Program-made: the position numbers and the translations under genes | Part shown: piece by piece, positions 40,287-41,889 of the stretch | Layout of the letters: every line of letters starts with the position of its first letter | Numbering within the stretch: the first letter of the stretch is position 1 | The notes under the pieces: generated by a model | Database searches by the model: none | Told to the model about the DNA's origin: nothing | The model's input: the letters and a program-made list of their open reading frames with translations, nothing else | NCBI GenBank assembly: GCA_003240755.1 | Contig: QFNF01000002.1 | Location: 1 to 64,000, forward strand | Direction of reading: 5' to 3' | Origin: Sphingomonas hengshuiensis | GTDB taxonomy: Bacteria; Pseudomonadota; Alphaproteobacteria; Sphingomonadales; Sphingomonadaceae | DNA length: 64,000 nt

Positions 40287-40421
40287 TTACTTGGTTTCGT
40301 TCGCGGCGCCGGCGACGGCGTTGCCTGCCGACGACACGTCCTTGCCGACGCCTTCGACGGTGTTGCACGCGCTGATGGCGAGGGCACCGGCAACCACGGC
40401 CAGGCTGAGAATCTTCCGCAT
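40287..40421 (-). CDS. Entericidin A/B-like small lipoprotein
   Basis: 44 residues starting MRKILSLAVVAGALAISAC, a lipoprotein signal with lipobox ISAC, followed by NTVEGVGKDVSSAGNAVAG, the entericidin family core. Entericidins are small envelope lipoproteins, first described as a toxin/antidote pair linked to stationary-phase lysis; here only one is present. GGAGGT (40426-40431) is the ribosome binding site. A longer in-frame extension upstream is not credible. Confidence 0.87.
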   Translation of the reverse strand: MRKILSLAVVAGALAISACNTVEGVGKDVSSAGNAVAGAANETK

Positions 40422-40464: not shown

Positions 40465-40489
40465 AATGTCTGACGAAACCATTCGTTCC
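40465..40489 (-). promoter_or_regulatory. Possible EcfG-type general stress promoter
   Basis: On the minus strand GGAAC (40489-40485) is followed after 16 bp by CATT (40468-40465), close to the alphaproteobacterial EcfG consensus GGAAC-N16/17-CGTT (one mismatch). It would give a leader of about 40 nt before the entericidin-like gene. Only the boxes are seen; stress control is inferred. Confidence 0.4.
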
Positions 40490-40512: not shown

Positions 40513-40550
40513 AAAAAAGCGACCCGCCGATCTGCATCGACGGGTCGCTT
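40513..40550 (-). terminator. Rho-independent terminator of the candidate sRNA
   Basis: A perfect 10-bp stem (40541-40550 with 40517-40526), 14-nt loop, and six consecutive T on the minus strand. It is a textbook intrinsic terminator for leftward transcription, 176 nt beyond the stop of the upstream secreted-protein gene. Confidence 0.9.
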
Positions 40551-40693
40551 AGTTTAAAACCAGAATATGGGTCCGGCGGACGCTACCGGGGGGGGGAGGG
40601 TGTGCGCCCAACCGGACCCTTGTGCGGATAGCGAGAGCGGGGGGGCATAAGATCGCTATCCGAAGGGCATAACGGGACGCGTGATCCTTGGTT
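40513..40693 (-). ncRNA. Candidate small RNA with two C-rich hairpin loops and its own terminator
   Basis: No gene fits this stretch. On the minus strand, TTGAAC (40729-40724) and TATTTT (40705-40700), 18 bp apart, could start a transcript near 40693. It then folds a perfect 9-bp hairpin GGATAGCGA/TCGCTATCC (40661-40626) whose loop holds seven C. Next comes a perfect 8-bp stem GGGTCCGG/CCGGACCC (40619-40569) enclosing CCCTCC and nine C in total. Last is a 10-bp terminator stem AAGCGACCCG/CGGGTCGCTT (40550-40517) running into six T. C-rich loops of this kind pair with Shine-Dalgarno sequences in known sRNAs. It may instead be the 3' UTR of the gene upstream. Confidence 0.55.
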
Positions 40694-40725
40694 CCGGAAA
40701 AAATACGCTTTTGTGAGAATGATGT

Positions 40726-41397
40726 TCAAGCGGGAAAGGCGCCGCAGCGCTTGACCTGCCAAACGCCCTTGCGCCAGCATTTCCGGTTTTCGAACTGATA
40801 CAGCCGGACCGGGCGGATATAGGGGATCTGGCGCGTGAACTGCTGTTCGCCGTACGCGACCAGCGAGTTGCGCAGCTTGCGCATCCGCAGTTCGGCGAAC
40901 TCGCCCAGATAGCCGCGCGGCACGAACAGCGCCTCCTGTCCGATCTCGTTCGCCGCCTGGCAGAAGCCGAGCTGCGCCGACACGGTCGAAAAGCCCGAAT
41001 ATACCCGCGTGCCGAACTGATCGAGCGCGGTCTGTCCGGCCTTCAGCGAGCCGGTGGTGCGATCGAAATATTTGTCGAGCGCGGCGTAGCTTTCCTTCAG
41101 CTCGTCGGCGTGGTTGAACAGCATGGCGTTGTAGTTGTTCAATGTCAGCATCGTGGGTTCGAACTGGCACTGTAACGCCGCGACGTTCAATGCCGAGCGC
41201 ATGTTCCACAACAGTGCTGCGCGCCGTTCGGCGGGCGTCGCGCCGGGCAGGGCCTGTGTGGTGATGCCCGGTTCCTCGCCGGTCACACGCGGGCCGTCGA
41301 GGTTGTACGGCTTGAAGAAAAATTGTGCCGACGCGGGGGTTGCCGCGACGGTCAGGGCGGCGGCAGCGGCCAGGACCAGGGTACGCACTACGCTCAT
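40726..41397 (-). CDS. Secreted protein of unknown function
   Basis: 223 residues. It begins with a clear signal peptide (VVRTLVLAAAAALTVAA, cleavage near ASAQ), so the protein is periplasmic or exported. The mature part has several Cys (LQCQF, LGFCQ, RKCW, KRCG) that could form disulfides, and conserved-looking aromatic stretches, but I recognise no domain. Its stop overlaps the -35-like box of the candidate sRNA. Confidence 0.7.
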   Translation of the reverse strand: MSVVRTLVLAAAAALTVAATPASAQFFFKPYNLDGPRVTGEEPGITTQALPGATPAERRAALLWNMRSALNVAALQCQFEPTMLTLNNYNAMLFNHADELKESYAALDKYFDRTTGSLKAGQTALDQFGTRVYSGFSTVSAQLGFCQAANEIGQEALFVPRGYLGEFAELRMRKLRNSLVAYGEQQFTRQIPYIRPVRLYQFENRKCWRKGVWQVKRCGAFPA

Positions 41398-41610: not shown

Positions 41611-41889
41611 TTACATGGCGTTGGTCATGCCGGCTTCGTTCGACATCATCATGGTGTCGTTCGACATCATCATGCTGTCGTTCGACATCATCATGGTGTC
41701 GTTGCCCATGGCACCGTCGACCGCGGTCATGTTGTCCGACATCGTGCCGTCCATCATGTCGGTCGAGTTCAGGTCGGTGATGGTCGCGTCGTTGGCAGCG
41801 GTGGTTTCGGTGTTGCCGCCGCAAGCCGACAGCGCCAGCGCCGCGCCGGCGACGATCGAACCGGTCAGGATCTTCGAGAATGCACGCAT
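41611..41889 (-). CDS. Methionine-rich repeat lipoprotein
   Basis: 92 residues. A lipoprotein signal (MRAFSKILTGSIVAGAALAL) with lipobox LSAC precedes an Asn/Thr/Asp-rich region and three near-identical seven-residue repeats NDxMMMS in the C-terminal third, then a Met-containing tail. The repeats are encoded by three 21-bp units. Met clusters in envelope proteins often bind Cu(I) or scavenge oxidants; neither is shown here. No family recognised. Confidence 0.75.
   Translation of the reverse strand: MRAFSKILTGSIVAGAALALSACGGNTETTAANDATITDLNSTDMMDGTMSDNMTAVDGAMGNDTMMMSNDSMMMSNDTMMMSNEAGMTNAM
41638..41700. repeat. Three tandem 21-bp repeats in the lipoprotein gene
   Basis: Units 41638-41658, 41659-41679 and 41680-41700 share the sequence beginning GTTCGACATCATCATG (plus strand). 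The middle unit differs by one base (CTG for GTG). Each encodes one NDxMMMS heptad, so copy number can change without a frameshift. Confidence 0.92.

What the first reader, a model, noticed from the sequence alone, without database searches (positions are those of the whole stretch)
40513..40693. Unannotated small RNA candidate with two C-rich loops
Seen: on the minus strand, two perfect stem-loops (9 bp at 40626-40661, 8 bp at 40569-40619) hold runs of seven and nine C plus CCCTCC, followed by a perfect 10-bp terminator with six T. A TTGAAC/TATTTT pair 18 bp apart sits where a promoter for a transcript of about 180 nt would be. Known: alphaproteobacterial stress sRNAs such as the Rhodobacter CcsR family use C/U-rich loops to pair with Shine-Dalgarno sequences. 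Inference: this is a regulatory RNA of similar architecture.
Basis: partly seen in the sequence, partly recalled or inferred. Interest (0 to 1): 0.72.

Follow-up and report, generated by a model that had tools for sequence, protein, structure and literature searches.

The report
Stress-sigma small RNA of sphingomonads
The minus strand carries a small regulatory RNA gene with two C-rich loops, conserved across Sphingomonas and apparently switched on from a general-stress promoter, so these environmental bacteria probably have an RNA arm of their stress response.

Summary
A perfect sigma-EcfG (general stress) promoter, GGAAC-N16-CGTT (40695-40671, minus strand), places the start near 40664, not 40693; TTGAAC and TATTTT occur in the window alone of 15 aligned sequences. 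Covariance models built without the promoter find the RNA, usually once per genome, in 159 of 394 Sphingomonadaceae genomes (a lower bound) and in 33 of 33 genomes reached through a neighbouring gene (32 titled Sphingomonas). Twenty of 23 base pairs show two-sided changes. GGAAC-N15..18-CGTT lies upstream in 104 of 137 loci (22 of 33,978 background windows). A HisKA_2-type kinase gene lies upstream in 105 of 137 loci; 11 extended loci show that this is the general stress locus (EcfG motif 11, PhyR motif 10). In the window's clade the RNA stands elsewhere but keeps its entericidin neighbour, which has its own EcfG-like promoter. Best explanation: a ~100-150 nt stress-induced trans-acting sRNA whose C-rich loops pair with G-rich mRNA sites, working like Caulobacter GsrN. 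Homology to GsrN is unproven, GsrN's katG target is not supported here, no target is established, and no expression data were available.

The parts
40691..40695 (-). -35 element GGAAC of a sigma-EcfG promoter
   Evidence: Kept in 15 of 15 sequences, the window and 14 relatives; in the wider set GGAA found at 136 of 137 loci, C next in 135 of those 136
40671..40674 (-). -10 element CGTT of the sigma-EcfG promoter (16-base spacer)
   Evidence: matches the published GSR motif GGAAC-N16-CGTT (PMC7083833, passages)
40662..40666 (-). Predicted transcription start (about 40664), from the usual -10 to start distance (recalled)
   Evidence: Inference; no TSS data
40626..40661 (-). Hairpin 1: 9-bp stem, loop with GCCCCCCCGCTC (C7 at 40645-40639)
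   Evidence: in 63 diverse members 98.6% of cells paired, 7 of 9 pairs with two-sided changes
40569..40619 (-). Hairpin 2: extended GC-rich stem, loop CCCTCCCCCCCCC (40600-40588); probably the terminator in many other lineages
   Evidence: 13 of 14 pairs with two-sided changes; T-rich tail 98 of 135
40513..40550 (-). Strong intrinsic terminator after hairpin 2, seen in the window's clade
40465..40489 (-). Separate EcfG-like promoter GGAAC-N16-CATT of the downstream entericidin gene
   Evidence: Present in 15 of 15 sequences; same motif form as S. melonis Fr1 gene #1442, which depends on EcfG (PMC6599016, passages)
40287..40421 (-). Entericidin-like small lipoprotein gene (44 aa), neighbour of the RNA
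   Evidence: PF08085, E 1e-07; similar gene downstream in 97 of 137 loci by a motif test
40726..41397 (-). Upstream 223-aa gene without Pfam match (neighbour of the RNA in the window's clade)
   Evidence: in 105 of 137 loci a HisKA_2-type kinase lies upstream instead

Best explanation
A small-RNA gene on the minus strand, transcribed from about 40664 by RNA polymerase carrying the general stress sigma factor EcfG. The product is a two-hairpin RNA (about 100-110 nt if it ends at hairpin 2, about 150 nt to the clade's strong terminator). Both hairpins present unpaired C-tracts that base-pair with G-rich sites in mRNAs and change translation or stability during stress. It works like Caulobacter GsrN. 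Shown by sequence: structure, conservation, promoter, and the family's usual home in the GSR locus. Inferred: transcription, EcfG dependence, pairing to targets, direction of regulation.
For: Covariance model R1, built without promoter: 8 of 8 Sphingomonas genomes, one hit each, and 131 of 397 family genomes; R2: 159 of 394 family genomes and 25 of 25 further genomes, 24 titled Sphingomonas and one Bacillus sp. 2B10. Covariation 0.398 against 0.173 in shuffles and at most 0.107 slid; 20 of 23 pairs with two-sided changes, reached by 0 of 500 shuffles (the structure was derived from the same alignment, which favours it in the slid control). Promoter, not part of the models: strict motif 104 of 137 against 22 of 33,978 overlapping background windows; relaxed 136 of 137 against 943 of 33,978; GGAAC-N15..17-NGTT in 25 of 25 of the second set. 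Home locus: kinase motif upstream in 105 of 137; in 11 extended loci picked by me, all with the kinase, EcfG motif in 11 and PhyR motif in 10, two PhyR confirmed by HMM. C-tracts predicted mostly unpaired (median 0.88 and 0.99). C-tract lengths vary (6-11 and 5-13), which speaks against a reading frame through them. The core GCCCCCCG complements G-rich sites (such as UCGGGGGGCG) listed for RNAs that co-purify with GsrN (PMC5869019 passages).
Against: No RNA-seq or TSS data could be consulted. 235 of 394 family genomes gave no hit; 20 of them rescanned more fully gave only two weak hits, one of which looks like a true diverged member. katG leaders in 8 loci show no consistent G-tract. Loop-complementary sites before ATG were more frequent than the reversed control (109 against 46) but the recurring ones look by eye like coding sequence, so no target is established. 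In the window itself the RNA is not beside GSR genes.
Confidence: 0.8

Rival explanations
1. It is not a separate gene but the structured 3' UTR and terminator of the upstream gene, or a double terminator between convergent genes.
For: It follows a gene on the same strand (kinase stop a median of 68 nt before the model start), ends in terminator-like hairpins, and a TatC-like gene is convergent in about 105 of 137 loci.
Against: A promoter outside the model is kept at fixed distance although the upstream gene differs between clades; loop letters are kept, which terminators do not need.
Confidence: 0.08
2. It is a cis-acting leader (riboswitch or attenuator) of the downstream entericidin gene.
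For: Same strand; entericidin-like gene downstream in 97 of 137 loci.
Against: Entericidin has its own GGAAC-N16-CATT promoter after the RNA in 15 of 15 sequences, a terminator lies between, and 40 of 137 loci lack the gene by the motif test.
Confidence: 0.05
3. It acts as a decoy: the C-tract loops bind a protein (an RNA chaperone or a C-binding regulator) rather than mRNAs.
For: Two similar C-loops in one RNA; no target could be established here.
Against: GsrN, with a similar C-tract, was shown by compensatory mutation to pair with a G-rich mRNA site (PMC5869019, section 11 read). That RNA is not proven homologous.
Confidence: 0.1

Closest known systems
GsrN of Caulobacter crescentus (Tien, Fiebig and Crosson 2018, PMC5869019; abstract, sections 7, 9, 11, 14, 29, 48 and passages read)
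   Same: Promoter of the general stress ECF sigma factor; about 100 nt; exposed C-tract in a 5' loop; a second exposed 3' region; predicted homologues typically near ecfG/nepR/phyR (C. crescentus itself an exception, as the window is here); core GCCCCCCG shared by inference from its target list.
   Different: Here two C-tract hairpins, the second probably doubling as terminator in many lineages; in a draw of 385 class genomes model R2 gave three hits, two also in the family sample and one without an EcfG promoter; katG target not supported. The paper reports BLASTn hits only in Caulobacteraceae and no apparent gsrN-like gene in Erythrobacter litoralis.
CcsR RNAs of Rhodobacter (recalled, nothing read)
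   Same: Stress-induced alphaproteobacterial sRNAs with C/U-rich loops.
   Different: No Rfam match at the locus and an EcfG-type promoter; other neighbours than those I recall.
SuhB of Sphingopyxis granuli (seen only as a title in the reference list of PMC7083833)
   Same: A sphingomonad small non-coding RNA.
   Different: By its title it acts in catabolite repression of tetralin genes; its sequence was not compared.

Membership tests
GsrN | Transcribed from a sigma-EcfG/sigT promoter | tested here: met
   Motif strict in 104 of 137, relaxed in 136 of 137 loci; sequence evidence only, no expression test
GsrN | Encoded near ecfG/nepR/phyR | tested here: met
   For the family: kinase motif upstream in 105 of 137; of 11 extended loci picked by me, EcfG motif in 11 and PhyR motif in 10. 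Not for the window, which has no such motifs
GsrN | Exposed C-tract in the 5' loop | tested here: met
   C-run 6-11, median predicted unpaired probability 0.88 over 135 loci
GsrN | Sequence homology to Caulobacteraceae GsrN | tested here: inconclusive
   R2 gave 3 hits in 385 class genomes of unknown family, none an EcfG-type hit beyond the family sample; GsrN letters could not be obtained
GsrN | Pairs with the katG leader | tested here: not met
   A run of four G in the 200 bases before the guessed katG start in 3 of 8 loci, none longer; katG found in 7 of 8 genomes
GsrN | Cleavage into a stable 5' isoform | not testable with these tools
   Needs a Northern blot
CcsR | Match to a described RNA family | tested here: not met
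   No Rfam family at gathering score for the locus; at E up to 10 only SSRC10 (23.6 of 56 bits) and Ref55 (19.1 of 43). Whether CcsR is in Rfam was not checked
CcsR | Heat-shock-sigma promoter and CcaF1 (DUF1127) gene upstream (recalled) | tested here: not met
   EcfG motif instead; upstream protein has no Pfam match

The most novel reading that the evidence does not exclude
An RNA hub built into the core general stress locus of sphingomonads, with two separate C-tract seeds that address different G-rich mRNA classes, including mRNAs of the GSR regulators themselves, forming a post-transcriptional feedback arm of the phyT-phyR-nepR-ecfG circuit; some genomes hold a second, EcfG-promoted copy.
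Probability: 0.25. Interest if true: 0.8.

Novelty: new variant of a known kind. Interest (0 to 1): 0.62.

Why it matters
Sphingomonas melonis Fr1 is a model for the alphaproteobacterial general stress response; in the main text of its EcfG regulon paper the words sRNA and non-coding do not occur. The RNA would sit between phyT (#1443) and the EcfG-dependent gene #1442 if Fr1 follows the common order (inferred; Fr1 itself was not examined). It makes testable whether C-tract sRNAs are a general output of EcfG, beyond the Caulobacteraceae and Rhizobiaceae for which GsrN-like RNAs were proposed, and it supplies a covariance model for an RNA that no Rfam 15 family matched at this locus.

Tried and rejected
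Rejected: sigma-70-like promoter; Rfam families SSRC10 and Ref55 (below cut-off); katG as conserved target; loop-complement pattern before ATG as a target finder: 109 matches against 46 in the reversed control over 8 genomes, but the recurring ones look by eye like coding sequence; EcfG-plus-C6 pattern in 20 family genomes without an R2 hit: 13 of 20 match, 19 matches against 14 in the reversed control, so not informative in bulk, though one match (G032) coincides with a weak R2 hit that on inspection has an EcfG-like promoter, two C6 loops, a T-run and a kinase motif upstream; L181 as a relative: no GGAAC promoter; a pattern deduced from GsrN target sites, meant to fetch GsrN itself: 0 of 385. 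Weak hits L183, L256 and L258 show no such promoter. Literature searches that named no sphingomonad EcfG-dependent sRNA in their listings: (open-access library only; two searches listed 20 of 835 and 12 of 201 papers).

Rows left out of counts: of the 131 genomes, the hit of G030 (at a contig end) and the second hits of G233 and G347 were not fetched; the 137 loci are the other 130 best hits plus the hits of G002-G008. L165 and L179 had no promoter by the pattern, leaving 135 there. For alignment A2, L179 was left out, then 62 loci were kept at under 86% identity and the window added, 63 rows. The 33 genomes were reached through a neighbouring gene (8 and 25 of them; the 3 Tsuneonella and Erythrobacter genomes are counted apart), so they are not a random sample. 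Family prevalence is a lower bound, since only 10 candidates per genome were scored.

Changes made on checking: the control count is 14 (first written as 11); one of the 33 genomes bears the title Bacillus; a diverged member (L182) and a possible second copy (L257) were added.

Full report
What is there. The window is sphingomonad DNA: the protein encoded next to the RNA is 91-94% identical to those of Sphingomonas panni, S. hankookensis and close kin. The fold is far better than shuffles (z -6.7).

The promoter. Immediately upstream is GGAAC-N16-CGTT at 40695-40671. This is the GSR promoter reported for Sphingopyxis granuli (GGAAC-N16-CGTT; -10 box flexible; PMC7083833, passages and section 10) and agrees with GGAAC-N17-20-GTT of S. 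melonis Fr1 (PMC6599016, passages). All 15 sequences of the clade (window and 14 relatives) keep it while the spacer varies.

Conservation. Aligning the 15 cores without promoter gave compensatory changes in hairpin 2 but an invariant hairpin-1 stem. Model R1 found one copy in each of 8 Sphingomonas genomes, four of which have the RNA at another place than beside the searched gene, and hits in 131 of 397 family genomes, two with a second hit. Among 63 diverse members 20 of 23 pairs have two-sided changes, 94.5% of cells pair, and the covariation score is 0.398 against 0.173 (shuffled) and at most 0.107 (slid by up to 3 columns). Hairpin 1 now varies too, with two-sided changes in 7 of 9 pairs. 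The structure was derived from this alignment, so the slid control favours it; the shuffles do not keep relatedness. Model R2 found 159 of 394 family genomes, six of them with more than one hit, and 25 of 25 further genomes (24 titled Sphingomonas, one Bacillus sp. 2B10) at E below 1e-11; of two Tsuneonella and one Erythrobacter genome only one gave a weak hit, at E 0.086 and without a promoter. In a class-wide draw of 385 genomes there were three hits: two also drawn in the family search and one without an EcfG promoter.

How complete the count is. Of 20 family genomes without a hit, rescanned with 150 candidates each, two gave weak hits. One of them, L182 (E 0.018), has GGAAC and AGTT at the right spacing, two hairpins with C6 loops, a T-run and a kinase motif upstream: a diverged member that the model barely sees. 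So absence from the 235 genomes without a hit is not shown.

An independent test. The promoter was not in the models. Within 70 nt upstream and 12 nt into the match, the strict motif occurs in 104 of 137 loci and a relaxed one in 136 of 137; overlapping background windows of the same flanks give 22 and 943 of 33,978. The column counts look like a promoter: GGAA at 136 of 137 loci, C next in 135 of those, a spacer of mixed composition, then cGTT. In the second set GGAAC with NGTT at the right spacing is present in 25 of 25, CGTT in 24.

Home locus. A HisKA_2-type kinase motif lies upstream on the same strand in 105 of 137 loci and an entericidin-like gene downstream in 97 (regular-expression tests); a TatC-like gene is convergent in about 105 by clustering. 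Eleven extended loci, picked by me and all with the kinase, carry an EcfG motif (11 of 11) and a PhyR motif (10 of 11), both motifs taken from sequences seen. HMMs confirm PhyR in the two tested (NF006623 above cut-off), sigma-70 region 2 and 4 domains in two EcfG candidates (EcfG itself by position and motif), and HisKA_2 in the kinase; the small NepR candidate matched nothing. In S. melonis Fr1 the published genes are PhyT #1443, NepR #1444, EcfG #1447, and #1442, a predicted small secreted protein, is in the table of EcfG-dependent genes (log2 -4.7) with a motif of the same form as the window's entericidin promoter (PMC6599016, passages). That the RNA lies between #1443 and #1442 in Fr1 is inferred.

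In the window's clade the RNA, the entericidin gene and tatC stand together, but a 223-aa protein gene without Pfam match lies where the kinase is elsewhere, and no GSR motif was found in the window.

Copies. A Sphingomonas MAG (G794) has a strong copy and a weak second one, L257 (E 0.0041), that also carries GGAAC and GGTT at the right spacing and two C6 loops: a possible paralogue.

How it works. C-tracts are predicted open (median unpaired probability 0.88 and 0.99). GsrN uses the C-tract of its 5' loop to pair with katG mRNA, shown there by compensatory mutation (PMC5869019, section 11). G-rich sites listed for GsrN partners, such as UCGGGGGGCG, are complementary to GCCCCCCG, the core kept here. 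I therefore think that this RNA pairs with G-rich mRNA sites during stress. katG is not supported as a target, and no target is established.

Verdict. A real, widespread sRNA family of sphingomonads that is very probably under the general stress sigma factor. It works like GsrN by the sequence criteria that could be tested, except the katG target; common descent with GsrN remains open. I found no description of it: no Rfam 15 match at the locus and none named in nine searches of an open-access library.

Noticed in passing
window 40465-40489 (-) and 40287-40421 (-): Entericidin-like gene with an EcfG-like promoter whose -10 is CATT instead of CGTT, present in 15 of 15 aligned sequences.
   Followed up: partly
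L257 (G794), 1501-1594 on the reversed strand: A weak second hit in a Sphingomonas MAG has GGAAC/GGTT upstream and two C6-loop hairpins: possibly a paralogous stress sRNA.
   Followed up: partly
L182 (G032): A diverged member barely seen by the model, with EcfG-like promoter, kinase upstream and T-run; the family is wider than the counts.
   Followed up: partly
window 41611-41889 (-): A 92-aa ORF with repeated Met/Ser/Asn-rich units after a lipoprotein-like signal; no Pfam match.
   Followed up: no
L005 (RPSH01000012.1): A contig titled Bacillus sp. 2B10 carries this Sphingomonas locus at 94% protein identity, so the record is probably mislabelled or contaminated.
   Followed up: no
L181 1501-1593: In a class genome (G529) two hairpins with C-tract loops resemble the RNA but lack a GGAAC promoter.
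   Followed up: partly
G013, G020, G061, G225, G233, G347: Six genomes have two or three hits to the model: possible paralogues or chance.
   Followed up: no
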